From NCBI RefSeq assembly GCF_006381105.1, contig NZ_VDET01000007.1:440705-504704 (forward strand): a DNA stretch of 64,000 nt, read 5' to 3'. The notes under the pieces were generated by a model. It ran no database searches. It had not been told where the DNA came from and worked only from the letters and a program-made list of their open reading frames with translations. Of this stretch, positions 13,569 to 42,120 are shown in pieces. The DNA comes from Flavicella sediminum (GTDB lineage: Bacteria > Bacteroidota > Bacteroidia > Flavobacteriales > Flavobacteriaceae). The translations under genes and the position numbers were made by a program. Every line of letters starts with the position of its first letter. The first letter of the stretch is position 1.

Positions 13569-14981
13569 ATGAATCAACAAGATACTATCGTTGCCTTAGC
13601 AACCGCGGCCGGTGTAGGAGCCATTGCTATTATCCGTTTGTCGGGTGCAGATGCTATAAAAATTGCAGATGCTCACTTTCAATCTATTCACAAAGAAAAA
13701 TCTTTAGTAGCTCAGAAATCACATACCCTTCATTTAGGACATTTAATGGATGGCAAAAGAGCCATTGACCAAGTTTTGGTTTCTATTTTTAAAGATCCGA
13801 ATTCGTATTCAGGTGAAAACACGGTAGAAATTTCTTGTCATGGTTCTGTATACATTCAACAAGAAATTATTCAGCTATTTTTAAGAAATGGTTGTAGAAT
13901 GGCAGATGCCGGTGAATTCACCTTACGTGCTTTTTTAAACGGAAAATTAGATTTAAGTCAGGCCGAAGCTGTGGCAGATTTGATTGCTTCTGATTCTGAA
14001 GCTTCACACCAAGTAGCCATGCAGCAAATGCGTGGAGGCTTTTCTAATGAAATTCAATTGTTACGAGAGCAGTTATTAAATTTTGCTTCCTTAATAGAAT
14101 TAGAATTGGATTTTGCTGAAGAAGATGTAGAGTTTGCCGATAGAGAACAATTTAGATCATTGATTGCAAGAATTCAGTTGGTTTTAAAAAGATTGATTGA
14201 TTCTTTTGCTGTAGGAAACGTGATTAAAAACGGAATTCCTGTGGCTATTGTTGGGGAACCCAATGTTGGAAAATCTACTTTACTAAATGCTTTGTTAAAT
14301 GAAGATAGAGCGATTGTTTCTGAAATTGCAGGTACAACTAGAGATACCATTGAAGATGAAATAATTATTGATGGTGTTGCTTTTCGGTTTATAGATACGG
14401 CTGGAATTAGAGAGACAGAAGATGTGGTTGAAAATATTGGAATTAAAAAAACTTTCGAAAAAATTACCCAGGCACAAGTCGTTATTTATTTGTTTGATTT
14501 ATCGAGTGTAAAGTATCAGGTATCAAGTAGCCAAAATCAGTTGACTACCATTAAAACTGAAATTGAATCTATCAAAAATCAGTTTCCTTTAAAACAATTA
14601 ATTGTTATTGGAAACAAAGCAGATACCATTTCTACAGACGAATTGGAAAATTTAAAAACGGTTATCCCTGAACTGCTAGCTATTTCTGCCAAACAAAAAA
14701 TGGGAATCGAAACCTTGACCAATCAGTTAACAGCCTTGATCAATACGGGTGCTCTTCAAAATAACGAAACCATTGTGACCAATTCTCGCCATTTTGATGC
14801 TTTGTTAAAAGCCTTGAATGAAATTAATAAAGTAGATGAAGGAATGCAACTGGGCTTGTCTGGTGATTTGTTGGCCATTGACATACGTGAAGCTTTGTAC
14901 TTTTTCGGCTTAATTACCGGTGAGGTTACCACAGATGATTTGTTAGGAAATATTTTTGCGAACTTCTGTATTGGCAAATAA
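13569..14981 (+). CDS. mnmE: tRNA modification GTPase MnmE
   Basis: With MnmG it installs the carboxymethylaminomethyl group on U34 of certain tRNAs. The 470-residue protein has the N-terminal tetrahydrofolate-binding domain (DTIVALATAAGVGAIAIIRL), a helical domain interrupted by a Ras-like G domain (GEPNVGKST near residue 228, DTAGIRET near 276), and the diagnostic C-terminal CIGK with the catalytic Cys. The gene is complete. The integrative element begins about 120 bases beyond the stop and does not disturb the reading frame. Confidence 0.96.
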   Translation: MNQQDTIVALATAAGVGAIAIIRLSGADAIKIADAHFQSIHKEKSLVAQKSHTLHLGHLMDGKRAIDQVLVSIFKDPNSYSGENTVEISCHGSVYIQQEIIQLFLRNGCRMADAGEFTLRAFLNGKLDLSQAEAVADLIASDSEASHQVAMQQMRGGFSNEIQLLREQLLNFASLIELELDFAEEDVEFADREQFRSLIARIQLVLKRLIDSFAVGNVIKNGIPVAIVGEPNVGKSTLLNALLNEDRAIVSEIAGTTRDTIEDEIIIDGVAFRFIDTAGIRETEDVVENIGIKKTFEKITQAQVVIYLFDLSSVKYQVSSSQNQLTTIKTEIESIKNQFPLKQLIVIGNKADTISTDELENLKTVIPELLAISAKQKMGIETLTNQLTALINTGALQNNETIVTNSRHFDALLKALNEINKVDEGMQLGLSGDLLAIDIREALYFFGLITGEVTTDDLLGNIFANFCIGK

Positions 14982-15101: not shown

Positions 15102-15124
15102 TTGTACCTTTATTGTACCTCAAA
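15102..15124 (+). other. Putative attL
   Basis: TTGTACCT, TTA, then TTGTACCTCAAA, with the two TTGTACC words 11 bases apart. It matches 41008-41030 at 21 of 23 positions and lies between the mnmE terminator and the integrase operon, as expected of an attachment site. Confidence 0.65.
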
Positions 15125-15325: not shown

Positions 15326-15895
15326 ATGAAAATTAGAAAAACTTGTGAATTCTGTTCCAAAACATTTTACGCAAAAAGATTGAGTACTAGATACTGTAGT
15401 TCAAACTGCAACAGTAAACATTACAAACAAAAAAAAAGAGAAGAGAACATAAGTGTTTCCAATACGAAAACATTACATATTTCAAATAACATTACACCAG
15501 ATCTTTTAAACAAACCTTATTTAAGCATCCTTGAAACTTGCATAATTTTAGGTATTAGTAGATCTTCAGTTATGAGAATGCTAAAATCAGACAAATTAGA
15601 GTCTCATAAAATTGGTGGAAAACGCATTATTAAAAGAGATGATTTAGACAATTTATTTAAATCATTTGAATTTGTTGAAATACCTGATGAAGCGATAAAA
15701 GTAAAAAGTGATTATAATATCGATAATTGCTATTATATAGGAGAAATTCAAAATGATTATCATATTTCCTCTAGCCATTTGAATAAACTTCTTAATCAAA
15801 AAAAGGTTGAAAAAATTCAAATAGGAAAACATAAATACGTTTTAAAAAAAGAAATCCATCAAATATTAGGAACACCAAAAAACAAGCAGCTATGA
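15326..15895 (+). CDS. Zinc-ribbon plus double-HTH DNA-binding protein
   Basis: A 189-residue protein. Residues about 8-32 carry four cysteines (CEFC and, after a gap, CSSNC) like a small zinc finger. Two helix-turn-helix segments of the excisionase/MerR type follow: LSILETCIILGISRSSVMRM (about 64-83, then IGGKRIIKRDDLDNLF) and a second, looser copy near 133-185 (YYIGEIQNDYHISSSHLNKL). The stop overlaps the integrase ATG by 4 bases, so the two are translationally coupled. A role as excisionase or regulator of integration is likely but inferred. Confidence 0.65.
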   Translation: MKIRKTCEFCSKTFYAKRLSTRYCSSNCNSKHYKQKKREENISVSNTKTLHISNNITPDLLNKPYLSILETCIILGISRSSVMRMLKSDKLESHKIGGKRIIKRDDLDNLFKSFEFVEIPDEAIKVKSDYNIDNCYYIGEIQNDYHISSSHLNKLLNQKKVEKIQIGKHKYVLKKEIHQILGTPKNKQL

Positions 15896-17037
15896 TAACC
15901 GTAAACTTAAGAAAGAAAAAAATAGCCAATGACAAATACAGCTTGTATTTAGATTTCTATCCTCCTATCATCAATTCAAAGACTGGAAAGCCTTCTCGTA
16001 GAGAGTTTTTAAAGTTGTACCTAAATGAACCTCCAAAAAACAGTGTTGAAAAAAGTCAAAATAAAAAGAACCTAGAATTTGCTGAACTAATAAGATCCAA
16101 AAGACATGTTCAACTTAGAGATAGAGAATATGGTTTTGAAGACAATGTTCGATTAAATATAGATTTTATTGAATACTATGATTCTATAGTAGCATCTAAG
16201 TTTGAATCAGAAAATATGTCGAATTATTCCTGTTGGAAATCATCCTTAAAGTACTTTAAAGCTTTTTGTGGTAATTCTGTTGTATACTCTAATTCTGTAA
16301 GTTTACAAATGGCGAATAATTTCAGAAGGTATTTATTAGCCGCTTATCAATTCCGAAGTAAAGAAAAAAAGCTTTCGACAAATACAGCTTCAAAATATTA
16401 CAAGATTTTTATTTACGTTTTAAAACAAGCTTATAAAGAAAATATTTTAACAAAGAATATTGCTGAGGATATTAGCTTTATTAAAGAGGAAGAGACTTTT
16501 AGAGAATATTTAAGTGAGGAAGAAATAACGAAACTATGGAACACAAAAATTAGCAAACCTATTGTTAAGAGAATGGCTATTTTTTCAGCCTTCACAGGAC
16601 TTCGATTTTCTGATATACTAAAGTTAAAATGGGATGATATTTATGGAGATGAGCATCAAGGTTATTATATCCAACTTCGCCAACAAAAAACAAAATCTAC
16701 CCAAAACCATCCCATTTCACCTAATGCCTATAAAATTCTTGAAATAGACAAAGAACCTAATGCTATTTTAATTTTTAACAATATTACCTATCATGCCATT
16801 AACAGACCTTTGAAAGAATGGATCACAAACTCTGGTATTAGGAAAAAAATTTCCTTTCATAATTTCAGACACAGTTATGCAACTTTACAGTTAGCTAAAG
16901 GAACGGACATCTATACCGTTTCAAAACTATTAGGACATAAAAATGTAGCTACCACACAAATTTACACGAAAGTCCTAGACAAGAATAAAATAAAAGCAGC
17001 TAACCTTATAAATATTGACCTTGATGGAATATCATAA
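15892..17037 (+). CDS. Tyrosine recombinase / integrase
   Basis: A 381-residue integrase of the Bacteroidota type. It has an N-terminal arm-binding region, a SAM-like core-binding domain (about 95-200) and a catalytic domain. The catalytic residues can be seen: Arg in TGLRFSD (about 237), Lys in QQKTKS, His-x-x-Arg in HNFRHSYA (about 325), His in GHKNVATT and the nucleophile Tyr in TQIYTKV (about 358). It is expected to recombine the TTGTACC-containing att sites located 0.8 kb upstream. It overlaps both neighbouring genes, so the three form one transcription unit. Confidence 0.93.
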   Translation: MITVNLRKKKIANDKYSLYLDFYPPIINSKTGKPSRREFLKLYLNEPPKNSVEKSQNKKNLEFAELIRSKRHVQLRDREYGFEDNVRLNIDFIEYYDSIVASKFESENMSNYSCWKSSLKYFKAFCGNSVVYSNSVSLQMANNFRRYLLAAYQFRSKEKKLSTNTASKYYKIFIYVLKQAYKENILTKNIAEDISFIKEEETFREYLSEEEITKLWNTKISKPIVKRMAIFSAFTGLRFSDILKLKWDDIYGDEHQGYYIQLRQQKTKSTQNHPISPNAYKILEIDKEPNAILIFNNITYHAINRPLKEWITNSGIRKKISFHNFRHSYATLQLAKGTDIYTVSKLLGHKNVATTQIYTKVLDKNKIKAANLINIDLDGIS

Positions 17038-23828: not shown

Positions 23829-26800
23829 TTAGAGCAATTTTGATTTAATTAGCTGTATTAATTGATTATAATCTCCAGTTTCTTTTAAAAGTTCTTCACT
23901 AGAAATTTTTACTCTAGGATCTGTAATACATGGTATTTCTAGAGGAATTGTACCTTTTTTACTTTCTTTATAAATTGTATTAAACATATTAATTTTGTCA
24001 AAATTATCCTTTTTTACAATACCGCTAAGATTGTTTTGAATTGCCAAGTTTGATTTTAAATACTGAATACTTGTTAAACCTTCTTTTTCTCTTTCTAGAG
24101 TGCAAACAATGTAGTTAGAAGAATCATTTCTTGATTCTACAATTTGACTTGGAGCAAAACTAAAATCAAAAGTTGATCCATGTTTGTAAGATTTCACTTC
24201 TAATTTAAGAATCTTTGTAGGATCATTTTTTTTGTAAAGCTCTATATCATATGCCCCTGCATAAGATTTATCTGGTATAATATCTATATCCTCACTACCT
24301 AATGCTTCTCTCAGTAATTCTTCTATGTTTTGACCAATTTTCAACCTATCTTCAAATAGCTCTTTCTTTTCAATAAATTTATCTACTTTATTCAAAAACT
24401 CATCTACTGATCCTTGTCCAAGTTTTTCATGCATTTCTTCAAGCTTGTCAATTGTTTGTTCAATTGTTTGGGCAGAGAGTTCTGATTTATGTATTTTTTT
24501 TGCCAAATTAAAAGTCTTTTCATCTTTTATTATATCTACTAATTCTTTTGAAAAAGTAATTTGAGAATATAATTTATCTGCTATAGAATCAAGTGTTTTA
24601 AAAAACTCACCTGCTTTATTTTTATTATTATCCCGCCATTGCAATAGTTCTAATAAATCTAATTTATAAACAAGTTTTTCTGTATCTGTATCATTTAAAA
24701 TACTCTCGCTTATAACCTTAACACAAGCATCAATTTCCTTACCTAAATCCACCCACTTTTTTGCAGGAAGAGAATTTAGCTCTATACCATCGTGTAATAA
24801 TATTTTTTTCCAATTTTCTTTAGGATTAAAAATTGAAAGATTCTTAATAAGTTGAGGTTCTAAGAAATTGACGGCCTTGCCCTCATTGATTTCATAAGAC
24901 CTGTACATTTTAATCTGATCCTCTGACTTTCCGTGAGCACAAAATTCACCACATTGATTTGGAATAATATTCGCCCAATGAAGTAGTTTATCAAACTCAC
25001 TAGTCTTAGCCTGTAAATTAAAAAAACTATTAAGCCAAATTATAGAAGCATCATAATTTTTATCCAACTTTAACGCTAATCCATTTACATTAACCGAAGC
25101 CTGTATTTCCTGATTGATTAAACGTATGGCGTGTTTGATTACATTTTCTAAATCGAAATCTTGAAAAAATGGAATTACTTTCTTTTCTATCGGACCAAAC
25201 ACATCTTGGATAAAAGCAAATACTTTCCCCTTATTAGTCTCCAAAGATTCACCTTCTTTTTGATAAGACAGCAGTGTTTGAAGAATTTCAACTGCATTAT
25301 CTCTGTCGTGTAATAATATGTAATCTCCTTTAGACTTCTCTCTTAATAAGAGTTTATTGATAATCGTACTTACATCATCTTTCAATTTTCTTTTTTCGAA
25401 AGAAAAATTACTTTTCACTTCACGATGGACTAAATGAGGACGTAGATCCTTTTCCGGGTCTAACTTGAACAAGATTTCAAGCAGCTCTGGTTCAATTTTT
25501 GATTTTGGATCTTCACTATACAACTTGTGAGTATCGTCTTTTCCTTTTCGGAAAGTGCCATTTAAATCCGGAAAAACATTGTTGTTATAAATAAATGAAT
25601 ACTCGTAAGTATCACAAAATTCGTAAAATTTATTTAGCCAAATAAAGGCATCTTTTTCTGTTTTCTCATAACCTAAACTTTCTATAAGTGATTTTAAATT
25701 TCCTTTTGATTTAATCTCCTTACTCACTAAAATTGTCATTAACTTAACAGTGGTTGCATATGAAAAATCCTGTGAGAAAAATACCTCTTCCGCTAAAATT
25801 TCCTGTTGAAATATAACTTCATTTATCGAATATATTGATATGACCTTTTTATCTATAACTTCTGAATTGGTGTCTCGAAATGAAAGCAAGGTTTGTAATA
25901 TTTCTTTCGCTTTTACAGAATCGCTAAGAAATGGATATTTATTATCCTTTTTATCACCAATTATTTCATTAATTTTATCTGAAATGTGTATTACGGAAAT
26001 TTCATGTAGATCAATCCCGGATAAATTAATTCCTCTGTGAAGTAAAAATGATTTCCAGTTCTCTTTAGGATCTAATTCTAGTAAAATTTCGAGAAACTGA
26101 TTTTCTATCTTGGATTTGGGTTTTTCAGTTTTAAGAGTTCCTATGGTAGAATCACCTCTAACCATGAAATTCCCTTCTTGATTTGGAAGAATAGCAAATT
26201 CTTTGTACAAATCAAATTCATTTACATCTTTGATGAAGATTATTAGATCATTTATCCAATCAATAGTTTCTGTCTCACTATTAAAGTTTAATTTAATTTG
26301 CAAATTTGAAATTGAGGCAGATTTTGATACTTCTTCTACAATATCTTTTATCTTAAGAATTTTAATTTTTTCACTTTCTTTCCAAAGCACATTGTGCCAA
26401 GAAGAAAGATTTCTTTCTAATGGAATTCTTGTTCCATATAATTTTCTACAAAATTTGTAAAAATCAGAATTTAACTTGGATCTTTTTTCGGTTTCTCCAT
26501 TTTTAATACATGGAAAGAATACTTGTGGTTTACCATCATCACCTATTATTGTTTTTCTTTCAGCTTTATCTTCACTTACATCAATAATAGGCGCTGTTAA
26601 TACAGTATTTCTAAAATTGTCAATTACATGATCTTTAAACCAATCTTTATCAATCCAAGATTCTGATGCTATTTTATTTAAAGAAGTTATATTAAATATT
26701 GATTCACCATCAATAGAAACTAATTGAACAAATTCAGCATACAACTCAGTTGCACTTTCAATTAAAGCTCTATTTACTTTATCTAAATCCTCTTCCTTAT

Positions 26801-27893
26801 CTTTTTCTTTGTTGGTGATTTTTTCTGTTGTTAAAGAAATACCATCCCTTGTCTCATTAGGTGTAAAAGAGTTTGAGTGAATCGTAATTGGAAGTTTAAT
26901 TGTATCACTTCCAATAAGAGGAAATGTGCAATAGAGAATGGGCATATTATCCTCTAAACTATCTTTATATACAGACTTAGCATCTTTAAGAATTAATTTA
27001 TCATCTTTAAAATTTTCAATAGGCCAACTTAACGTGACTTTATCATTTGACAAAGTAGCTACAGAGTATTTCTCCACCAGAACGCCTTTATTCAATTTTT
27101 GAGTAGTATTAACCACTATTCTTTTATATGAAGATACTTCCCCCTTTTTATATGTGAAATTTTTATCATTAAACTTATCTTCAATGGTAACACTAGAGAC
27201 CTTATCATTTAGTGCAAATACCGTAGGTAATGATTGTTCAATTTCTAAAAAACCTGTGTTTACACGAAATATTGAATCTGGATCATTTAAAAAATACGTG
27301 AATTTTGTTATATCAGTTTCTGAATCTGGAGGAGTTCTGTCTCGTTTCATTTTGTCATATTCCTCAAGACTCGAAATAATCCCTGTTATTCGTTGTTTGG
27401 CCGAATCTTCAGATTTACTCATGTAATGAGTTCTATCTAATGTCGTTTTAAGTTGTATACGCTCACCTTCATTAGTCAAAAGAACACCTTCTACTTCAAT
27501 TTGTAATGACAGATTGTGAGTAGATAAAAAACCCGTACCAAATTTACCTACAGTACTTTCATCACTCACACTTTTACCTGAAACAGGTGAAATTAAATTC
27601 TCAAAGTCATCTGCATATAAAAGTTCGTCTTTAGTTTCTTTAAAAGGACCACCATTATGACTAAAATGCATTCTAGCCGTTTGTTCTAACTCACATTTTT
27701 CTAGAGAAACCCAAATATCTACTTTTCTATTTGGCTCTGAAGAAATTGAATCAATAGCATTTTGAAGTAACTCCCAAAACCATCGTTTTGGTCCAGACGG
27801 ACTTCTAACGGCTTTGTCTACTTTTTGTAAAATTTCCTTAGCAGCATTTCTAGCTGCTCTTACATTTCCTGCGGAAGCTGATGAGTTTTTCAT
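23829..27893 (-). CDS. Sacsin-like GHKL ATPase with repeats and a DUF3883/nuclease-like C-terminus
   Basis: A 1354-residue protein. The N-terminus is an Hsp90-type ATPase: WFWELLQNAIDS (Asn motif, about 41-52), SHNGGPF (about 78) and GKFGTGFLSTH (about 117). Three internal repeats follow near residues 565-630, 772-835 and 975-1045. Each reads roughly PN..G.F, then a leucine-rich stretch, then LDP.ENWK..LLHRGI, the modular build of sacsin. The C-terminus (about 1185-1290) resembles DUF3883, with YDIEL and LKLEVKSY as a possible D...ExK nuclease site. It sits between a PtuB-like gene and hsdR. A defence role is likely from context; the mechanism is unknown. Confidence 0.75.
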   Translation of the reverse strand: MKNSSASAGNVRAARNAAKEILQKVDKAVRSPSGPKRWFWELLQNAIDSISSEPNRKVDIWVSLEKCELEQTARMHFSHNGGPFKETKDELLYADDFENLISPVSGKSVSDESTVGKFGTGFLSTHNLSLQIEVEGVLLTNEGERIQLKTTLDRTHYMSKSEDSAKQRITGIISSLEEYDKMKRDRTPPDSETDITKFTYFLNDPDSIFRVNTGFLEIEQSLPTVFALNDKVSSVTIEDKFNDKNFTYKKGEVSSYKRIVVNTTQKLNKGVLVEKYSVATLSNDKVTLSWPIENFKDDKLILKDAKSVYKDSLEDNMPILYCTFPLIGSDTIKLPITIHSNSFTPNETRDGISLTTEKITNKEKDKEEDLDKVNRALIESATELYAEFVQLVSIDGESIFNITSLNKIASESWIDKDWFKDHVIDNFRNTVLTAPIIDVSEDKAERKTIIGDDGKPQVFFPCIKNGETEKRSKLNSDFYKFCRKLYGTRIPLERNLSSWHNVLWKESEKIKILKIKDIVEEVSKSASISNLQIKLNFNSETETIDWINDLIIFIKDVNEFDLYKEFAILPNQEGNFMVRGDSTIGTLKTEKPKSKIENQFLEILLELDPKENWKSFLLHRGINLSGIDLHEISVIHISDKINEIIGDKKDNKYPFLSDSVKAKEILQTLLSFRDTNSEVIDKKVISIYSINEVIFQQEILAEEVFFSQDFSYATTVKLMTILVSKEIKSKGNLKSLIESLGYEKTEKDAFIWLNKFYEFCDTYEYSFIYNNNVFPDLNGTFRKGKDDTHKLYSEDPKSKIEPELLEILFKLDPEKDLRPHLVHREVKSNFSFEKRKLKDDVSTIINKLLLREKSKGDYILLHDRDNAVEILQTLLSYQKEGESLETNKGKVFAFIQDVFGPIEKKVIPFFQDFDLENVIKHAIRLINQEIQASVNVNGLALKLDKNYDASIIWLNSFFNLQAKTSEFDKLLHWANIIPNQCGEFCAHGKSEDQIKMYRSYEINEGKAVNFLEPQLIKNLSIFNPKENWKKILLHDGIELNSLPAKKWVDLGKEIDACVKVISESILNDTDTEKLVYKLDLLELLQWRDNNKNKAGEFFKTLDSIADKLYSQITFSKELVDIIKDEKTFNLAKKIHKSELSAQTIEQTIDKLEEMHEKLGQGSVDEFLNKVDKFIEKKELFEDRLKIGQNIEELLREALGSEDIDIIPDKSYAGAYDIELYKKNDPTKILKLEVKSYKHGSTFDFSFAPSQIVESRNDSSNYIVCTLEREKEGLTSIQYLKSNLAIQNNLSGIVKKDNFDKINMFNTIYKESKKGTIPLEIPCITDPRVKISSEELLKETGDYNQLIQLIKSKLL

Positions 27894-31198: not shown

Positions 31199-32461
31199 TT
31201 AAAAGATTTGATTGATGATACTTTTTTGAATGTTTTTGGAGCTTTCAATTGAATAATCAATCAATTTCCTGTTTTTCTCAACTTCGGTCAAAACTTCAAT
31301 AACCCTTTCTTGTTCAATTACAGAATCAGGAATTGCCAGTTTAAAACCTCTTTGTGAAGTTATACCTACATAGGCTCTTGTTGATTGAGAACTTAATCTC
31401 AATATTTGATTTTGAAAATAGCTTGAATTAAAAACGTAGTACAAAAACTTATGCTTTAACTTACTTTCATTAGTACGATACAATGTAACTTGAGGCGTCA
31501 ACATTAAATACGGATAATCAATTTTGTCGGGTACAATCGCGACTTCACCTACGGTTCCCTTATGACTTAACAAGACGTCATTTGGATAGGAAAACCCAAT
31601 TCGTAGTTTGTCCGTAATCGATCGAGGAAGTTTTTTTGATTTGTTGAAATCAATTTCCCCATCAATAAGAGTATTCGCCATAATGAAAGGAATACCTTCA
31701 TCTACATAATCTGCAGATTTTGGATGAATTTCACCATGGTTTCCATCTTGGACTTTAATTATTGCTTCGTTCCTTATAAGATCTCCAATAGTTGTGATAT
31801 TCCATCTTTCGGCAACATCACGCTTTAGGTTTTCAGAAAAATTTACTTGATTATTCAGCCCTTCAAGAACTAAATTGCTTTTTGATACTTCGTATTGAAC
31901 ATTTGCAACATTTTTCAATTCAATCTCCTTCTCAATCACTTCATCCATAGACCACAATAATTCTGCTAATTTAACTTGCTGGTCTTTTGGTGGCAAGAGG
32001 AATTCGTATTCTGCTAAATCACGCCATTTTACCCTTTTCGACATTGTACCAGCCGCATTAGAGTTCGCATAGTCCCAAAGTGCATTAGAATTCATTAAAA
32101 AAGCTAAAAAACCAGGTTCAACTTTATCATGATTTTCTCTTAACACAAAGGCATCTCCAGAACAACAACCATCAAAATCAACTAAAGAAGCTCTTCTTAA
32201 ATAAGCATTTCTACGAGCAAAAAGAATATCTCCAGCCTGAAAGGCCTTAGCTGATGATGCTAAACCATCCGTAGAATCCCAAAATTTAATTTTAATATCA
32301 CCAGAAACAAAACTTCTCAAACTAACAAAACGATCATACTCCGATTTACTTGGATTGTCAACACGTTTTAAAATATCAGTAGCTAGATCACCTAATTTTG
32401 TAGGAGTCCAATTTGTTTTGTCTAGGTTTAACACTTTATTATCTACTATAGTATTAATCAT
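31199..32461 (-). CDS. hsdS: Type I restriction-modification specificity subunit
   Basis: The 420-residue protein recognises the bipartite DNA target. It has two target-recognition domains (about residues 17-155 and 215-390), each followed by a conserved helix. The central spacer ends the first with LLPPKDQQVKLAELLWSMDE; the second ends with IPDSVIEQERVIEVLTEVEK. The start overlaps the end of the second hsdM by 8 bases. The two recognition domains are different from each other, so the target should be asymmetric. The sequence recognised cannot be predicted here. Confidence 0.92.
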   Translation of the reverse strand: MINTIVDNKVLNLDKTNWTPTKLGDLATDILKRVDNPSKSEYDRFVSLRSFVSGDIKIKFWDSTDGLASSAKAFQAGDILFARRNAYLRRASLVDFDGCCSGDAFVLRENHDKVEPGFLAFLMNSNALWDYANSNAAGTMSKRVKWRDLAEYEFLLPPKDQQVKLAELLWSMDEVIEKEIELKNVANVQYEVSKSNLVLEGLNNQVNFSENLKRDVAERWNITTIGDLIRNEAIIKVQDGNHGEIHPKSADYVDEGIPFIMANTLIDGEIDFNKSKKLPRSITDKLRIGFSYPNDVLLSHKGTVGEVAIVPDKIDYPYLMLTPQVTLYRTNESKLKHKFLYYVFNSSYFQNQILRLSSQSTRAYVGITSQRGFKLAIPDSVIEQERVIEVLTEVEKNRKLIDYSIESSKNIQKSIINQIF

Positions 32462-33917
32462 TTGATAAAGTTTTAAAAAGTGTATTCATAGATTTTTTTA
32501 ATGTTTTGGAACTTTTTTTCCAATCTGAAAGTAATACATCAAAATCCTCTTCTATAATTGCATCTTCTTTTACAAATAACTGTACGCTTAAACGTATGTT
32601 CTTATCTTTTAGGATTTCTTGTTTATCTACAATAGTAGCAAAGTTTTTCTCACCTTCAAAGTTTAAGTAAGCATTATGGATACGTTCTATATGGTGAGGA
32701 TCTAAGTAACTAATCGTTTTTTCATTTCTCACTTCATCTACAGCCTGAATAAATAAAACTTTATTTTTCCTTTCAGCTGGTTTATTATTATTCGTAATCA
32801 ATAGACATGAAGTCATGGAAGAGTTATAAAATAAGTTCGGCCCTAGGCTTATAACACACTCTACAACATCTTCTTCAATCATTTTTTCACGCATTTCTGC
32901 TTCTTTATCTCTAAACAACACCCCATGAGGCCAAAGAGAAATAGAACGACCATTATCATCATCCAAACTCTTTTGTATATGTTGCTGAAAAGCATAATCT
33001 GCACAACCCTGTGGTGGTACTCCCCATAAATTACGTCCAAACGGATCATTTGCAAAAGATTTTTGGTCCCATACTTTAATCGAGTATGGAGGATTGGCCA
33101 ATATTACATTGAATTTTTTCAATTCATCATCATGTATAAAAGCAGGATCCGCCAAGGTATCACCACGTACAATACTAAATTCTTCTATACCATGCATAAA
33201 CATATTCATACGAGCAATGGCAGAAGTTATTAAGTTAATTTCTTGTCCATATAACTTAAGCGTACGGTATTCTTTTCCTTCACTTTTTAAATGCAAAGCA
33301 CAGTTTAATAGTAAACCTCCAGAACCACAAGTAGGATCGTATACAGATTCTCCTGGCTGTGGGTCCATTATTTTAGTCATTAAGGTTACTACAGTCCGGT
33401 TGGTGTAAAACTCCGCTGCTGTATGTCCACTATCGTCTGCAAATTCTTTAATTAAGTATTCATAGGCGTTTCCTAATTTATCATCAGGAATATTACTTAA
33501 GCTTAATATATGCTTAGAATAATGTTCTACCAAATTGGTCAACGTTTCATCACTCAAACGGTTTTTATTGGTCCAAGCTGCATCTCCAAAGATACCATAC
33601 AAGGTTTCAGGATTCGCCTGTTCAATGATACGCATGGCATCTTGCAAGGCCAAACCTACATTTGTAGTTGTTTCTCTAACATCATTCCAATGTGCTCCTT
33701 CAGGAACCTGAAAATGGTGGTTTTCTGCAAAGGATGCAAACTCTATATCTCCATCAGATTCTTTTAACGCATTTTGATACTCTTCATCGTATACATCACA
33801 AATACGCTTAAAGAATAGCAATGGGAAAATATACTGTTTGTAATCTCCTGCATCTATAGTACCACGCAATTGTACAGCGGCACCCCACAGGTATTTTTCT
33901 AATTCTTTTTGTGTCAT
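32454..33917 (-). CDS. hsdM: Type I methyltransferase subunit, second copy
   Basis: A 487-residue N6-adenine methyltransferase with the SAM motif DPTCGSGG (about 193) and catalytic NPPYS (about 275), plus an N-terminal helical domain (LWGAAVQLRGTIDAGDYKQY). Its ATG overlaps the stop of the preceding hsdM by one base (TAATG). It is a clear homologue of that gene along the whole length, but the sequences differ throughout, so this is an old duplication or paired subunits, not a recent copy. Both keep their catalytic motifs. Confidence 0.92.
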   Translation of the reverse strand: MTQKELEKYLWGAAVQLRGTIDAGDYKQYIFPLLFFKRICDVYDEEYQNALKESDGDIEFASFAENHHFQVPEGAHWNDVRETTTNVGLALQDAMRIIEQANPETLYGIFGDAAWTNKNRLSDETLTNLVEHYSKHILSLSNIPDDKLGNAYEYLIKEFADDSGHTAAEFYTNRTVVTLMTKIMDPQPGESVYDPTCGSGGLLLNCALHLKSEGKEYRTLKLYGQEINLITSAIARMNMFMHGIEEFSIVRGDTLADPAFIHDDELKKFNVILANPPYSIKVWDQKSFANDPFGRNLWGVPPQGCADYAFQQHIQKSLDDDNGRSISLWPHGVLFRDKEAEMREKMIEEDVVECVISLGPNLFYNSSMTSCLLITNNNKPAERKNKVLFIQAVDEVRNEKTISYLDPHHIERIHNAYLNFEGEKNFATIVDKQEILKDKNIRLSVQLFVKEDAIIEEDFDVLLSDWKKSSKTLKKSMNTLFKTLSND

Positions 33918-35398
33918 TATAAAAATGTTTTCAAAATAGCTTTAAACTTCTCTTCTGCTTTTAAACTTTCATCCCATGCTGTTTTTAAATCAGACAAGGC
34001 TTCTTCTACAGAAGGTAAATTGTCTTCAATAATTTTTTCAACGTACAAAGGAATGTTTAAATTGTAATCGTTTTCTTCTAAATCTTTATGGGAAGCTACT
34101 TTTACAAAATTCTCCACATCTTCAAAATTTTGATACCATTCAAATATTTGATCTACATGATTCGATTCTAAATAGTTTTGAGCCCTTCCCACACGTACCT
34201 GATCAGAAGCATCTATGAACAATACCTTGTTTTTCTTTGCAGTAGGTTTATTATGTTTAAACACCATGACACAAGCAGCTAACTGAGTACCATAAAAAAT
34301 ATTAGATCCCAAACCAATTACAGCTTCTAACAAATCTTGTTCTAACAAAGCTTTACGAATTTTACCTTCGGCACCTTTACGGAACAAAGCACCATGAGGT
34401 AACACTACAGTCATACGCCCATTTTCCTTCATTGAAGAAATCATATGTTGTACCCAAGCCATGTCTCCATTTCCTTTAGGAGGAACACCAGCAATATTTC
34501 TACCAAAAGGATCGTTTGCCCAAACATCTGCTCCCCATTCTTTTAATGAAAAAGGTGGATTCGCTATTACACAGTCAAATTTCTGTAAACCATCTGCCTC
34601 AAAAAATGCAGGATCTCTTAGTGTATCCCCTCTTTTAATATCAAAGTCTTCTATACCGTGCAAAAACATGTTCATACGGGCAATAGAACTAGAAGTTAAG
34701 TTCTTTTCTTGTCCGTATATTTTAAGTGTCCTATAATCTTGACTGTGTTCTTTTAAGTGATCAACACATTCTAGTAGCATTCCTCCAGTACCACAGGCAG
34801 GATCATAAATTGTTTCTCCTTCTTTGGGATCTAAAATCTGCCCTAATAAATGTACTACAGAACGAGGTGTATAAAATTCACCCGCTTTTTTATTGGTTAA
34901 ATCTGCAAAGTGTTTTATCAAATACTCATATGCATTCCCCAACAAATCAGGATCTACATTGCTGTTTGATAAATTGTATTGAGAAAAATGCTCAATCAAA
35001 TCAATCAACAATCTATCCGAGAGTTTGTTTTTATTGGACCACTGAGCATCACCGAAAATACCATATAAAAACTGCTGATTTGCTTGTTCTATATTTCTAA
35101 GTGAACTCTCTATTGCAAGTCCAACATTAGAAGTTGTTTCTCTAATATTATTCCAATGGCATCCATCTGGCACATCAAAACGATGAAACTCGGGTAAAGA
35201 AGCGTATTCTGTATCCCCTTCAGATTCCTCTAAAGCTATTTGGTACTCTTCATCGTATACATCAGAGATACGTTTAAAAAAAAGTAATGGGAATATATAT
35301 ACCTTAAAATCAGATGCATCAACCGGACCTTTTAAAATCCATGCTGCTTTTTCTAAATATTTTTCTAATTGAGATAAAGTTATTTTTTCTTTAATCAT
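33917..35398 (-). CDS. hsdM: Type I methyltransferase subunit, first copy
   Basis: A 493-residue N6-adenine methyltransferase with SAM motif DPACGTGG (about 199) and catalytic NPPF (about 277). The N-terminal helical domain begins LSQLEKYLEKAAWILKGPVD. It is the promoter-proximal gene of the restriction operon. Together with the second copy it could form a hetero-dimeric modification core on a single HsdS. Some type I loci carry two M genes, but most have one. Confidence 0.92.
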   Translation of the reverse strand: MIKEKITLSQLEKYLEKAAWILKGPVDASDFKVYIFPLLFFKRISDVYDEEYQIALEESEGDTEYASLPEFHRFDVPDGCHWNNIRETTSNVGLAIESSLRNIEQANQQFLYGIFGDAQWSNKNKLSDRLLIDLIEHFSQYNLSNSNVDPDLLGNAYEYLIKHFADLTNKKAGEFYTPRSVVHLLGQILDPKEGETIYDPACGTGGMLLECVDHLKEHSQDYRTLKIYGQEKNLTSSSIARMNMFLHGIEDFDIKRGDTLRDPAFFEADGLQKFDCVIANPPFSLKEWGADVWANDPFGRNIAGVPPKGNGDMAWVQHMISSMKENGRMTVVLPHGALFRKGAEGKIRKALLEQDLLEAVIGLGSNIFYGTQLAACVMVFKHNKPTAKKNKVLFIDASDQVRVGRAQNYLESNHVDQIFEWYQNFEDVENFVKVASHKDLEENDYNLNIPLYVEKIIEDNLPSVEEALSDLKTAWDESLKAEEKFKAILKTFL

Positions 35399-36033: not shown

Positions 36034-36855
36034 TTATTTAGTTTGATAATATTTCATTGCGTCTAAGGACAGTTTTTTTTCATACACGTTGCCTTTATAC
36101 GCAATCACACTTTTTTTAATTTGTCTAATTTCAATTTCAATTTGATTTTCTTCATTCTCATATTCTAATTGCAGAAACATAATTGAACGTTTGTGTAGTT
36201 GCATACTATTAGCTTCAAAATCGTAAAAGGTACTAGTTCCTTTTTGTTTGTTAAAAAACACCGCAAAATCAGATTGGTTTATTTTACTTAAAATTGGTCT
36301 GTTTTTATGAGGTATTTGTACTACCTCATTATTCATTAATTTATGTGTCTGTGTAATCTGATAACCCGAAAATGATTTATTCTTACGGTTATTGTTATCT
36401 ATTTGATCTTTAGGATTAAAATACTCTTTTGATAAATCATTATAAAAACACTCAAAATCAACTGTTTCTATTTTTTGAATTTTTGCTTTTTTATCATTTA
36501 AAAAAGAGATGCCTTGATGTGTTATTTCATACACTATATTTCCTTCCTCATAATGTTCTTCTATTAATTCCTGTTTAAGTAAATAGTGAATTTGCATTGT
36601 GGTAAAGTCACTTTCAGTTATGCCCAAAAAATCACAAATTCCCTTATGCGTCTTTATTTTAGAGTGAATTAACTCTAAAATAATTTTACTAAACCGATCT
36701 ATTTCAACAAAATTTTCAACTACAATTTTTTGTTTACAATACCAAAAAGGAATAAAAACCTCCGTTATATTTTTAAGTTCAAAACCTTCTGTGCTTCTAT
36801 GATTTTTAAATTTATTATAAACACTCTGGTAATCTCTTTTTTCCTTTTTAAGCAT
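36034..36855 (-). CDS. Winged-helix-like partner of the pseudokinase helicase
   Basis: A 273-residue protein of no recognised family. Residues about 50-120 look like a winged helix (SKIILELIHSKIKTHKGICD, FTTMQIHYLLKQELIEEHYE, YEITHQGISFLND), as in MarR/ArsR-type regulators. The rest is a beta-rich domain. It overlaps the upstream helicase gene by 8 bases, so the two are translated together. No phospholipase-D HxK motif or other nuclease signature is visible. Probably the second component of a two-gene defence or nucleic-acid surveillance unit. Confidence 0.55.
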   Translation of the reverse strand: MLKKEKRDYQSVYNKFKNHRSTEGFELKNITEVFIPFWYCKQKIVVENFVEIDRFSKIILELIHSKIKTHKGICDFLGITESDFTTMQIHYLLKQELIEEHYEEGNIVYEITHQGISFLNDKKAKIQKIETVDFECFYNDLSKEYFNPKDQIDNNNRKNKSFSGYQITQTHKLMNNEVVQIPHKNRPILSKINQSDFAVFFNKQKGTSTFYDFEANSMQLHKRSIMFLQLEYENEENQIEIEIRQIKKSVIAYKGNVYEKKLSLDAMKYYQTK

Positions 36856-39800
36856 TTATTGCATCTTTTAATGAGTTAAATATCAATTCTTGTTCCTCCA
36901 ATTCTTTAACAATATTTTGAAGTTTAAATTCTTTAAATTTATCATCCTTAAACAACATTGCTCTTTTTAAAATATAGTCACTATCACCAACAATAATAAG
37001 TAAACGCTTGGCTCTAGAAAAAGCAACATTTATTCTACGATAATCTTGTAAGAACCCTATAGTACTTTTTCCACTATCACTTCTTACAACATCATAAATT
37101 ATAATATCTCGTTCAGCACCCTGAAATTTATCAACAGTGTTTATTTCAATTAATGATTTGGTTTTATCTTTATCAACTATCGTGAAGTTAGAATACTCTG
37201 AATATTTTATTTTTTCCTTTAACAAATCTACTTGTCCTCGGTATCCAGCAATTACCCCAATATCAAAAGGAGTTGCTTTTTTACTATTTTCACTATAACG
37301 TTCATTTAACTCTTTAAGCACTTCCTTAATCACATCAACATTGCATTGATTTTTCCTTTCAAACTTATTTCCATTGTCATTGTGATTATGTCTATTTGAT
37401 GTGGTAACAAATAAAACCGAACTTGGGACTTGAATTTTTGAGTCGCTAAACTTGTCCGTTATTTGAACAAAAGGTTTCTTTAATTTTAGGTGATGAAATT
37501 TTTTCTGATCATAATCACTTAAACCTTTCAATCTAATATCAGGGTTTTTTAAATGACCGTTATAAAAATGATTTGAAATAATAGTTCCTAATTGTCTAGG
37601 CATTCTATATTGAATATCTAACATCTTTATATATGCCTGTAGACTAGGGTTCGCTTCAAAAGAAGTTATAAGTCCTTCGAATAAACTTTCTCCAAACTCT
37701 TTTTCAAAATCTAAACCATTATCATCTAATTCGTTCCTAACCTTATTTTTTATAGCTTCTTCTCGTGTTACAACTGGTGGAAGTTGTTTGTGATCTCCAA
37801 TTAAAATAACATTTCTTGCCATATTAATCGGTACAAGTGTTTCCGCTGGTGAAGCTTTGCTTGCTTCATCCATAATAACATAATCAAATTTTAAATCAAA
37901 TTTGCTATACTTTGCACTTGCTATATGAATACACGTTGCTCCAAAAACATTCATAGATAAAGCATAGGCCGATGAAAAATCAATTTCATTACTTCCATTA
38001 TTCAACATAGATTTCCCTTCAGATGTAGCGTTAGAAATAAAAGCAAACCATTCTTTTTTCAGCTGAATTAATTTTCGATAATCTTCCCCTAATTCTTTAT
38101 CAAAAATTTTCTGAATATCATTTTTAGAAGAAACTCCTCCAAATTGTTTTTTGATATAATTTGGACGAAACTTTAAACTATTATAAAACTCACCCAATAA
38201 TTTTTTTTCATTCTTTTTTTGCATCCTGCTATATGCCAAATAAAAGTCGATTAGAATATTGTTTTTAGATTTTGATCCAAATCTTTTTTCAAAATACTTA
38301 TCTGAATTCTCTTTTGTTTTTTCTATCCAATATTTTAATTTGTTTTCAAACAAATGTGCTTTAACATTTTGATTTATATTCTCATTTTCTACAACCTCTC
38401 TACTTGCAAGACGCATAGATAAAATTTCTTCTGGTAATCTTTCTAAAACATTATCAACCGCCAAATTTGACTGAGAAGTAATTAAAATTTTACAACTTGA
38501 ATTTTTATTAACCAGTTGTTGCACCAGCTCCACAATTACAGTCGTCTTTCCTGTACCAGGGGGTCCTTGAATTAGGAAAACAGGTTTTTTATATAAAGCT
38601 TCTAACACAGCTTCTTTTTGACTCGCATCATTTTTTAAATACCCTGAAATAATTTCATTTTCAAATGCTTCAAAATCTAAATCAACACGATTAAAAGGAG
38701 GTGTTTTTTCTGGAGTGGCAAGAATCCCTGCAATATCAGGATTTGTAATATCCCTTTTTGAAAACTGCTTACAAGCTTCAACTTGCTTTTTAAACTGACT
38801 CGTTTCTTGTCTCACATCTTGAACTAACTCTCCTGTTTTTGGAATCTCCTCAAGACTTAAGTTTGAATCTTTTATTATCAAAAAATTACCTGAAGGATTA
38901 AAATCTAGAATTTCACCAATTTCAGCATCATCAATACATAAAACAGTTTTCTGACCTTTAAGTTCCTTTACGCCTCCCCAATCTTTAAAATCTTCATTGA
39001 GGCTAAATCTAATATTTTGATTATTACTTTTACTTTCTTCTCTTTTTAAATAAGTAGCTTTAAATGCTTTTTCTTCAATAAATTCTTTTTCTTTTTCAGG
39101 AAGTGCTTGCCATTTCTTTAAAATGCTTGTTTGCTTCTTATACAAAGAGTCAAGTTTGTTGTTTTTCTCAAATTCTGTTTCAAAAAACGCTACACAATTA
39201 TATACTGAATTTTCAAAAGAGAAATTAAAAGGAGCTATTGTCCCCTTATTTTTAACCCTATCATTGGCTCCAGTATGATTAGGAAATGGAATAAACATTT
39301 GGTTTTGATTCCCTACAAAATAACGGCCTGAGAAATTCTCTGTCGAAAATTGACCTGTAATTTCATTCTTTTGTTCTGATTTTTTGCTCTCAATTGTCCA
39401 ATAACAAGAAGTATTCATTTCTTGAAGTATTTCTAAAAAATCATTATCTGATACATTTGAAACTACCTTAATGATCTCCTTGGAATGTTTTGAACCTGTT
39501 TCTAATTTTTCAATATCAAAAAGTAATTCTGAATATTTTTTATAGCGACCTACTCTATCCTTCGTTAAACACCTATCAAGTATCTCTAAATTGTTTGATA
39601 AAAATTCTGAGTATAAAATACCGATCGCAAATACATCATCTTGAAGCCTTGGTTTTTTGTTCTCTAGTAATTGTGGCGATAGAAAATCTTTATCTAATGC
39701 TTCATAAAGTTTAAAAATCTCAAACAAACCGATAAACTTAATTAGAATATCATTTTCCCCGTTCTGTATGATTCCCCCCTTATTCAGAATAAAACCATAT

Positions 39801-40156
39801 CTATTATTATTTTTTAACTCATTTAATGTTTCAACTAAGCTTAAGAAGTTTTTTTTATCGAATTCCTTAATAGGATAAAATTGCTCTTGGGTGTTTTCGT
39901 AAACAATAAAATGAAAATTATTTTTTTTATCAAATCCCGTTTCTACAATTTGTTGAATACCTTTTATTTCTGATTTAACAAATGGATAAACTTCATTTTT
40001 AAGAATTCTATTTATTTGATTTTCGAACTCTTTTTTTGAAACGATTGTTAATGCTTCAAGCTCGACGCCTGAAACATCTTCAACTAGCCACAATGTTAAA
40101 TTTTCTCCATAAGATTCTATTTCTTCTATAATTTCATAATTCGCAATTTTCTCCAT
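36848..40156 (-). CDS. SF1 (UPF1/Dna2-like) helicase with N-terminal pseudokinase domain
   Basis: A 1102-residue protein. Residues about 1-220 follow a protein-kinase fold: an opening YEIIEEIESYGENLTLWLVE; FLSPQLLENKKPRLQDDVFA where kinases have APE and the DxW/FxxG helix; and a closing LTKDRVGRYKKYSELL. The HRD and DFG catalytic motifs are missing, so it is probably inactive. An SF1 helicase of the COG1112 type follows: Walker A GPPGTGKTT (about 530), DEASKASP (about 762), QYRMPRQLG (about 847), DKFQGAERDIIIYDVVRSD (about 1010) and INVAFSRAK. The kinase-like plus COG1112 helicase build is that of Mokosh defence helicases. Confidence 0.75.
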   Translation of the reverse strand: MEKIANYEIIEEIESYGENLTLWLVEDVSGVELEALTIVSKKEFENQINRILKNEVYPFVKSEIKGIQQIVETGFDKKNNFHFIVYENTQEQFYPIKEFDKKNFLSLVETLNELKNNNRYGFILNKGGIIQNGENDILIKFIGLFEIFKLYEALDKDFLSPQLLENKKPRLQDDVFAIGILYSEFLSNNLEILDRCLTKDRVGRYKKYSELLFDIEKLETGSKHSKEIIKVVSNVSDNDFLEILQEMNTSCYWTIESKKSEQKNEITGQFSTENFSGRYFVGNQNQMFIPFPNHTGANDRVKNKGTIAPFNFSFENSVYNCVAFFETEFEKNNKLDSLYKKQTSILKKWQALPEKEKEFIEEKAFKATYLKREESKSNNQNIRFSLNEDFKDWGGVKELKGQKTVLCIDDAEIGEILDFNPSGNFLIIKDSNLSLEEIPKTGELVQDVRQETSQFKKQVEACKQFSKRDITNPDIAGILATPEKTPPFNRVDLDFEAFENEIISGYLKNDASQKEAVLEALYKKPVFLIQGPPGTGKTTVIVELVQQLVNKNSSCKILITSQSNLAVDNVLERLPEEILSMRLASREVVENENINQNVKAHLFENKLKYWIEKTKENSDKYFEKRFGSKSKNNILIDFYLAYSRMQKKNEKKLLGEFYNSLKFRPNYIKKQFGGVSSKNDIQKIFDKELGEDYRKLIQLKKEWFAFISNATSEGKSMLNNGSNEIDFSSAYALSMNVFGATCIHIASAKYSKFDLKFDYVIMDEASKASPAETLVPINMARNVILIGDHKQLPPVVTREEAIKNKVRNELDDNGLDFEKEFGESLFEGLITSFEANPSLQAYIKMLDIQYRMPRQLGTIISNHFYNGHLKNPDIRLKGLSDYDQKKFHHLKLKKPFVQITDKFSDSKIQVPSSVLFVTTSNRHNHNDNGNKFERKNQCNVDVIKEVLKELNERYSENSKKATPFDIGVIAGYRGQVDLLKEKIKYSEYSNFTIVDKDKTKSLIEINTVDKFQGAERDIIIYDVVRSDSGKSTIGFLQDYRRINVAFSRAKRLLIIVGDSDYILKRAMLFKDDKFKEFKLQNIVKELEEQELIFNSLKDAINA

Positions 40157-41007: not shown

Positions 41008-41030
41008 TTGTACCTATTTTGTACCTCAAA
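41008..41030 (+). other. Putative attR
   Basis: TTGTACCT, ATT, then TTGTACCTCAAA: the same two-word structure as 15102-15124, with 21 of 23 bases identical. It marks the switch from defence cargo to ordinary flanking genes. Confidence 0.62.
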
Positions 41031-41148: not shown

Positions 41149-42120
41149 ATGGATACTCTTTTATCGAATTACATTCAAAATTTCTCAAAATTAAGAAGAG
41201 CATCTCCTAAAAATTTAGGTAAAGCGCCTCATAAACCAATTTTGCTATTATCCATAATTCAGCTAATCAAATCTGGTCGTATAAATTCAAACAGAATATT
41301 TATCATACATGAGTTAGTATTAGCCTTTAAATCTAATTGGAAGCTCTTAGTAGAAACAAATCATACAGCTAACTTTGCTCTTCCCTTTTTTCACATGAGA
41401 AGTGAACCTTTCTGGAATTTAGTTTGCAAACCAGGAATGCAGCTTTCTATAACAAAATCAAAAAGTATAAAAAGTTTTAAAACTTTAAAAGATGCTATTG
41501 CTTTTGCGGAAATTGACAAAGCTTTATTTGAATTATTAAATGACCCTAAATGCAACTTTATACTAGAAGAAATCTTAATAAAAAATTATTTCAATAACTC
41601 AAATTTCCAGTTAACAGAAATACCTCAACTTCAATTAGAAATTGAATATCAAATTTTAAATGATGATCGTGAGACTTATTCCTCTAAAATTAAAGATTTA
41701 CAAGAAAATTTAGATGAATCAAGTTTTCAGGAAGAAATATTTGTAAGAGGTGGTGTCTTTAAAAAAACCATTCCAGAAATATACAATCACCAATGTTGTA
41801 TCTCTGAAATGAAAATTCAGTCTTCAATTAATGCCCAAATGATTGATGCTTGTCATATCGTTCCTTTTAGCATCTCTCACAATGACACCGTTCAAAATGG
41901 CATTAGTTTGTCTCCCAACCTACATAGAGCTTATGACAGAGGTTTAATTACCATAAATAAAGATTATATTGTTAGAGTTTCCCCAACAGTAACTGATAAT
42001 GATTCTGTGTATTCAATTTCTCAATTTGATGGCAAACAAATAGCTTTACCTAATGACCTAAAAAATTATCCCTCTCCGGAATCCTTAGTATGGCATACAA
42101 AAGAAGTTTTTCAATTATAA
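41149..42120 (+). CDS. HNH restriction endonuclease, possibly sulfur-DNA sensing
   Basis: A 323-residue protein. The C-terminal half is an HNH nuclease of the COG3440/HNH_2 type: DACHIVPFSISHNDTVQNGI and LSPNLHRAYDRGLITI (about residues 239-275), with a Cys before it (QCCISEM). The N-terminal half (LRRASPKNLGKAPHKPILLL, then a long helix and PFFHMR) resembles the sulfur-binding domain of ScoMcrA-type enzymes that cut phosphorothioate DNA. That reading is tentative. It starts 118 bases outside attR and may be a remnant of another insertion at this hotspot. No dnd genes are in the window. Confidence 0.72.
   Translation: MDTLLSNYIQNFSKLRRASPKNLGKAPHKPILLLSIIQLIKSGRINSNRIFIIHELVLAFKSNWKLLVETNHTANFALPFFHMRSEPFWNLVCKPGMQLSITKSKSIKSFKTLKDAIAFAEIDKALFELLNDPKCNFILEEILIKNYFNNSNFQLTEIPQLQLEIEYQILNDDRETYSSKIKDLQENLDESSFQEEIFVRGGVFKKTIPEIYNHQCCISEMKIQSSINAQMIDACHIVPFSISHNDTVQNGISLSPNLHRAYDRGLITINKDYIVRVSPTVTDNDSVYSISQFDGKQIALPNDLKNYPSPESLVWHTKEVFQL

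What the first reader, a model, noticed from the sequence alone, without database searches (positions are those of the whole stretch)
36034..40156. Pseudokinase-helicase and winged-helix protein as a possible new two-gene defence system
The 1102-residue protein keeps the kinase fold landmarks after the activation loop but lacks the HRD and DFG catalytic motifs, then continues as a COG1112 SF1 helicase. Mokosh systems pair a kinase-like/COG1112 helicase with a phospholipase-D nuclease. Here the overlapping partner has a winged-helix-like region and no visible PLD motif. It could be a Mokosh variant with another effector, or a separate type.
Basis: partly seen in the sequence, partly recalled or inferred. 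Interest (0 to 1): 0.68.

Follow-up and report, generated by a model that had tools for sequence, protein, structure and literature searches.

The report
Mokosh variant lacking kinase and nuclease
Two overlapping genes in a mobile defence island form a previously unlisted branch of the Mokosh anti-phage family, in which a helicase keeps a dead kinase domain and its partner protein has lost the nuclease; the pair is conserved across two bacterial phyla, so it lets one ask whether Mokosh needs its nuclease at all.

Summary
The 1102-aa protein (36848-40156, minus strand) is a COG1112/UPF1-like SF1 helicase. Its N-terminus folds as a protein kinase (AlphaFold2 plus Foldseek, best hit PknB, E 3e-10) but lacks the beta3 Lys, HRD and DFG residues. 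The 273-aa partner overlaps it by 8 bp, carries a winged helix and has no PLD motif. The partner is MkoB's N-terminal half (profile-profile E 5e-18 over its whole length) with the C-terminal PLD nuclease absent. This is not decay. A scan of 84,980 genomes found 23 related loci in Bacteroidota and Fibrobacterota, one helicase clade with the window (SH-aLRT 100). Every readable member is a pseudokinase (21/21), every one with downstream sequence carries the PLD-less partner (22/22 with the window; one cut by a contig end), and dN/dS is 0.07-0.21. Neighbouring canonical Mokosh I loci are nearly all active-kinase plus PLD. So this is a conserved kinase-dead, nuclease-less Mokosh subtype, on a probable 26-kb integrative element with Septu and type I RM. 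Mechanism is inferred: helicase-driven remodelling, or a nuclease recruited in trans. Three Fibrobacterota loci have a coupled third gene that looks like a PIN nuclease.

The parts
36848..40156 (-). Pseudokinase-SF1 helicase (kinase-dead MkoA homologue), 1102 aa
39497..40156 (-). N-terminal protein-kinase fold without catalytic residues (residues 1-220)
   Evidence: AF2 plus Foldseek; motif table
38642..39475 (-). Middle region between kinase fold and helicase core (residues 228-505), conserved in the clade, fold not identified
36962..38641 (-). SF1 (UPF1-like, COG1112) helicase core with intact Walker A GPPGTGKT, DEAS motif II, FQGAERD and RINVAFSR (residues 506-1065)
36034..36855 (-). PLD-less MkoB homologue, 273 aa; overlaps the helicase gene by 8 bp
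   Evidence: PADLOC MkoB 2.8e-5 over positions 4-124 of 610; hhalign to canonical MkoB 5e-18
36496..36696 (-). Winged-helix part of the partner (residues 54-120)
36037..36495 (-). C-terminal alpha/beta domain of the partner with clade-specific H183, P187, R223 besides Y211, D212, R244; corresponds to the domain that precedes the PLD domain in canonical MkoB
36848..36855 (-). 8-bp gene overlap (translational coupling inferred)
15102..15124 (+). Candidate attL of the integrative element carrying the pair, just downstream of mnmE
   Evidence: (family D13); inferred
41008..41030 (+). Candidate attR, 23-nt direct repeat of the above (91% identity), about 850 bp upstream of the helicase gene
   Evidence: family D13; inferred

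Best explanation
The pair is a conserved subtype of Mokosh type I in which the MkoA kinase has become a pseudokinase and MkoB has lost its PLD nuclease. Shown by sequence: homology of both genes to MkoA and MkoB, loss of kinase residues and PLD throughout the clade, an intact helicase, overlapping genes and purifying selection. Inferred: it is a mobile anti-phage or anti-element system. The helicase, docked to the winged-helix partner through the conserved pseudokinase and middle domains, loads on invader RNA or DNA and acts by ATP-driven unwinding or stripping of nucleoprotein complexes. In some lineages (Fibrimonadaceae) it may hand the substrate to a nuclease that is not part of the core pair. 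The pseudokinase is an allosteric or scaffolding switch that replaces the phosphorylation step of canonical Mokosh. I put 0.9 on the identity (PLD-less, kinase-dead Mokosh subtype), 0.8 on defence function and about 0.4 on the helicase itself being the effector.
For: MkoA 7e-133 and MkoB 2.8e-5; 19/21 partner sequences hit MkoB; hhalign of partner against canonical MkoB N-terminal half, prob 99, E 5.4e-18. 23 loci from the genome scan; partner next to the helicase in all loci with downstream sequence. Kinase residues in the clade against canonical: beta3 Lys 0/21 v 36/37, HRD Asp 0/21 v 36/37, DFG Asp 0/21 v 37/37; PLD HxKx4D 0/22 v 32/33. Monophyly SH-aLRT 100. Helicase motifs Ia, II, III, V, VI in at least 23/24 (L061 is truncated by its contig); Walker A GPPGTGKT in 17 of 24 and GPPGAGKT in L042, L044, L058 and L060, not resolved in L048, L051 and L061. 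dN/dS 0.21 pseudokinase, 0.16 and 0.065 partner. Mantel r 0.90 between helicase and partner distances. Defence context: Septu and type I RM in the window; type IIG, I and III RM, PbeC and Orf5/HEC-06 families near relatives.
Against: No activity data. No structure of the complex was computed. Canonical Mokosh itself has no mechanism in the papers I could read beyond domain inference. Some relatives sit next to housekeeping genes such as a DnaK-like gene (L051, L060, by eye). The partner has clade-specific conserved residues (H183, P187, R223) that could hide an enzymatic role.
Confidence: 0.55

Rival explanations
1. Effector in trans: the pair senses invader nucleic acid and recruits a separate host- or island-encoded nuclease, the PLD being replaced by interchangeable partners.
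For: In three Fibrimonadaceae loci (L050, L053, L057) a third gene overlaps the partner and encodes a zinc ribbon plus a PIN-like domain with conserved Asp/Glu positions; the partners there also gained a zinc ribbon.
Against: No third gene is shared by the other loci; the PIN call is borderline (PIN_4 6.7e-4, below the Pfam cut-off, in one of three proteins; no PIN structure hit).
Confidence: 0.3
2. Cryptic enzyme: the partner's C-terminal domain (residues 121-273) has itself become the effector, for example a nuclease, using clade-specific H183, R223 and E259 with D212 and R244.
For: H183 and P187 are invariant in 21/21 and D212 and E259 nearly so; the H..P, FYD and R-S-I-x-F patterns are absent from the equivalent region of canonical MkoB.
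Against: Foldseek of the AF2 model matches only the winged helix among the listed hits; D212 and R244 are also common in canonical MkoB, where the PLD is the obvious enzyme; no Pfam or PDB enzyme match.
Confidence: 0.13
3. Degraded Mokosh: a pseudogenised remnant kept by chance.
For: Two enzymatic parts are missing compared with canonical Mokosh.
Against: Same loss in a clade of 24 sequences over two phyla, dN/dS far below 1 in both genes, open frames, overlapping genes. No PLD remnant near the operon.
Confidence: 0.02
4. Not defence: a nucleic-acid housekeeping or mobile-element maintenance module.
For: No functional test; carried by an integrative element, so element maintenance is possible.
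Against: Sporadic distribution (no clade member except the own locus among 301 genomes of the family and 395 of the class), two diverged copies in one Kordia genome, Mokosh homology, defence-rich neighbourhoods.
Confidence: 0.12

Closest known systems
Mokosh type I (MkoA: Ser/Thr kinase + COG1112 helicase; MkoB: PLD nuclease)
   Same: Two coupled genes in the same order; helicase core and kinase fold homologous to MkoA; partner homologous over its full length to the N-terminal half of MkoB.
   Different: Kinase catalytic residues lost in the whole clade; MkoB's C-terminal PLD domain absent; a separate monophyletic helicase clade at about 30% identity to canonical Bacteroidota MkoA.
Mokosh type II (MkoC: helicase fused to PLD)
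   Same: COG1112 helicase; PADLOC MkoC 2e-34 to the helicase region.
   Different: Not fused, no PLD, has a pseudokinase N-terminus and a winged-helix partner.
PglW / BREX type 2 and DndF pseudokinase modules
   Same: Pseudokinase modules in defence proteins, in PglW together with wHTH modules (PMC12839542).
   Different: Those pair the pseudokinase with an active kinase and a NERD nuclease in one protein; here there is neither, and there is a helicase.
Aliarcobacter kinase-less helicase + 491-aa partner (L036)
   Same: COG1112 helicase followed by a partner without a recognisable PLD motif.
   Different: No kinase fold recognised at the N-terminus, coiled-coil-like partner, only distantly related (long branch in the tree).

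Membership tests
Mokosh type I | MkoA-type COG1112/SF1 helicase | tested here: met
   PDLC03920 E 7e-133; helicase motifs intact
Mokosh type I | Serine/threonine kinase domain on MkoA | tested here: not met
   Kinase fold present but catalytic residues absent in window and clade
Mokosh type I | Partner gene homologous to MkoB, adjacent downstream | tested here: met
   hhalign E 5.4e-18, 8-bp overlap
Mokosh type I | PLD nuclease domain in MkoB | tested here: not met
   HxKx4D 0/22 in clade v 32/33 canonical; no PLD remnant near the operon in the window
Mokosh type I | Anti-phage activity | not testable with these tools
   needs plaque assays
Mokosh type II | Single protein with helicase and C-terminal PLD | tested here: not met
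   two genes, no PLD
Protein kinase | Kinase fold | tested here: met
   Foldseek 4eqm PknB E 3.2e-10; PDB profile hit 3.5e-4
Protein kinase | Catalytic Lys, HRD Asp, Asn, DFG Asp | tested here: not met
PLD-less Mokosh clade proposed here | Pseudokinase-helicase plus PLD-less MkoB, monophyletic, co-inherited | tested here: met

The most novel reading that the evidence does not exclude
A defence system whose only enzyme is the SF1 helicase: kinase and nuclease were both shed and invader nucleic acid is defeated by unwinding or stripping alone, which would make PLD cleavage dispensable for Mokosh-type immunity.
Probability: 0.33. Interest if true: 0.75.

Novelty: new variant of a known kind. Interest (0 to 1): 0.6.

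Why it matters
In the published definition, Mokosh's effector is the PLD nuclease and type I carries a kinase. Here is a natural, selected double loss: kinase residues and PLD are both absent from one clade while helicase and MkoB N-terminal half are kept. That suggests a functional link between the kinase and the PLD step, marks the helicase plus winged-helix subunit as the core, and gives a direct test of what the core does alone. It also means detection models that require MkoB's PLD part may miss this branch: the partner scores only 21.6 bits, over positions 4-124 of PADLOC's 610-position MkoB model.

Tried and rejected
Plasmid tblastn with the partner: no match. Single-protein searches in 301 family, 398 order and 395 class genomes found no clade member except the own locus, so a two-sequence alignment was used for the genome scan. 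Viral contigs: no relative; phage records: only distant helicases, 26% identity. Pseudogene remnant of PLD downstream: tblastn of the full-length canonical MkoB proteins against the window gives the partner as the best match and no significant PLD match beside it. Weak UDPGT, DUF3644 and LmuC hits were taken as chance or as generic winged-helix similarity. A shared third gene was sought by clustering neighbours of 23 loci: none across the clade. Literature: no held paper found that describes a pseudokinase or PLD-less Mokosh, but the library holds open-licence papers only and the original Mokosh paper was not among those found.

Full report
OBSERVATION. Both genes are real and at the stated coordinates: a 1102-aa ORF (36848-40156, minus) and a 273-aa ORF (36034-36855, minus) that starts 8 bp before the first one ends. 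The large protein hits AAA_11, AAA_12 and the UPF1/SEN1/DNA2/SMUBP2 class of SF1 helicases in the PDB and PADLOC's MkoA at 7e-133. Its N-terminus gives no Pfam kinase hit alone, but an AlphaFold2 model of residues 1-450 (mean pLDDT 88) matches bacterial Ser/Thr kinases of the PknB type, E 3e-10, and a profile of the clade finds the same kinases by sequence, 3.5e-4. So it is a kinase fold. The motif table shows it is dead: Leu at the beta3 Lys, Gly and Ile at HRD His and Asp, Phe at DFG Asp; APE Pro, alphaF Asp and aH-aI Arg remain.

THE PARTNER IS HALF OF MkoB. The 273-aa protein matches PADLOC MkoB over positions 4-124 of 610 at 2.8e-5, and 19 of 21 partner sequences (itself included) match MkoB. 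A profile-profile comparison with 19 canonical MkoB proteins aligns the partner over residues 8-273 with the N-terminal half of MkoB, probability 99, E 5.4e-18, and ends before the PLD domain begins. Canonical MkoB proteins continue with the PLD motif HRKxxIKD; the partner stops. No PLD remnant lies in the 0.6 kb before hsdM. The AF2 model (pLDDT 87) has a winged helix of MarR/ArsR type (all E above 0.001, so fold class only; HTH_45 up to 1.2e-6 in homologues) and an alpha/beta domain with no structural match among the hits listed.

A CONSERVED BRANCH, NOT DECAY. A scan of 84,980 species genomes returned 23 loci matching at 37-63% identity (L042-L064), followed by a drop to 34% or below for canonical MkoA. 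Every one of these loci with enough downstream sequence has the PLD-less partner between -65 and +9 bp: 21 of 21, plus the window; one of the 21 is cut by the contig end. In the 21 N-termini that can be read, beta3 Lys, HRD His and Asp and DFG Asp are never present; in 37 canonical proteins they are present in 36 or 37. The PLD motif is in 0 of 22 clade partners and 32 of 33 canonical partners; the exception, L096, has an active-type kinase and an MkoB that stops at 272 aa in front of another gene. In a helicase-core tree the PLD-less pseudokinase proteins are one side of a branch with SH-aLRT 100 (quick search, no bootstrap). Cyanobacterial Mokosh I (L034, L035) has kinase motifs and PLD, so loss of both in this clade is the parsimonious reading, although the order of the deepest branches is not resolved. 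dN/dS between Lacinutrix and Bizionia copies is 0.21 in the pseudokinase, 0.16 in the middle, 0.07 in the helicase core and 0.16 in the partner; other pairs give 0.065-0.16. Helicase and partner distances correlate at r = 0.90 (0 of 2000 permutations as high). One Kordia genome holds two copies only 46% identical, and a Fibrobacter sequence nests among Bacteroidota, both signs of horizontal transfer.

LIMITS OF THE SURVEY. The genome scan used only the peptides FDYVIMD and MEK[IL][AG][NA]Y[EN], so members without them were missed; 23 is a lower bound and intermediates cannot be excluded. In a sample of 396 phylum genomes a profile of the partner found only the own locus and two canonical MkoB, so the subtype is rare.

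CONTEXT. The pair is the last cargo of what looks like an integrative element next to mnmE: tyrosine recombinase at 15892-17037, an excisionase-like gene, a primase-like ATPase (these named by eye), then HsdR, Septu PtuAB, HsdS and two HsdM genes, flanked by a 23-nt direct repeat at 15102 and 41008 with 91% identity. The repeat search also lists chance repeats of similar length, so att is an inference from position. Relatives lie beside type IIG, type I and type III restriction, PbeC and Orf5/HEC-06 families; some lie beside genes that look like housekeeping, such as a DnaK-like gene.

MECHANISM. Shown: intact SF1 helicase motifs in nearly all members, dead kinase, missing nuclease, co-inheritance. 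Inferred: the helicase with its winged-helix subunit is the working core; pseudokinase and middle domain link or gate it; the outcome is ATP-driven remodelling of invader RNA or DNA. Papers held describe Mokosh as COG1112 helicase plus PLD nuclease, type I with an added STK domain (PMC11672841), and describe transcript degradation as its action, with piRNA-pathway domain homology (PMC11291487); without PLD this cannot be the pair's own chemistry unless another enzyme joins. The clearest hint of that is a third gene in three Fibrimonadaceae loci, overlapping the partner by 8 to 14 bp, with a zinc ribbon and a PIN-like domain, while the partners there also gained a zinc ribbon. PIN assignment is tentative: one Pfam hit below cut-off and no PDB hit. 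A cryptic enzyme in the partner's C-terminal domain remains possible because H183 and P187 are invariant and clade-specific or nearly so.

VERDICT. A new variant of a known kind: kinase-dead, PLD-less Mokosh. It works, most likely, like a stripped-down Mokosh; it is not a member of Mokosh type I as defined, because two defining features were tested and not met.

Noticed in passing
window 15102-41030: Probable integrative element of about 26 kb at mnmE (13569-14981) with integrase 15892-17037 and defence cargo (type I RM, Septu PtuAB, the Mokosh-like pair); candidate att repeats at 15102-15124 and 41008-41030.
   Followed up: partly
window 23829-27893: 1354-aa protein with a sacsin-like HATPase N-terminus and DUF3883-like C-terminus (by eye) inside the type I RM operon, between HsdR and the other subunits; possible embedded defence gene.
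   Followed up: no
window 32454-35398: Two tandem HsdM-type methyltransferases (MTase_I 1e-206 and 5e-165) with a single HsdS; unusual for a type I operon.
   Followed up: partly
window 41149-42120: HNH protein related to phosphorothioated-DNA restriction endonucleases (NF045808, 2.6e-28, below cut-off), just outside the candidate attR.
   Followed up: partly
L050 11519-12421, L053 6960-7850, L057 10745-11572: Third gene with zinc ribbon and PIN-like domain overlapping the partner gene in Candidatus Fibrimonadaceae; possible replacement nuclease.
   Followed up: partly
L036 4867-9127 (Aliarcobacter cryaerophilus plasmid): Kinase-less COG1112 helicase followed by a 491-aa partner with no PADLOC match and no obvious PLD motif, next to Qat genes: perhaps another Mokosh-like variant.
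   Followed up: partly
L096 9316 onwards: Canonical MkoA with intact kinase motifs whose MkoB stops at 272 aa in front of a GxxExxY-like gene (by eye); a natural truncation at the same domain boundary.
   Followed up: partly
L059 4046-5881, L054 12825-15413: A second MkoA-like/COG1112 helicase gene lies close to the PLD-less Mokosh pair.
   Followed up: no
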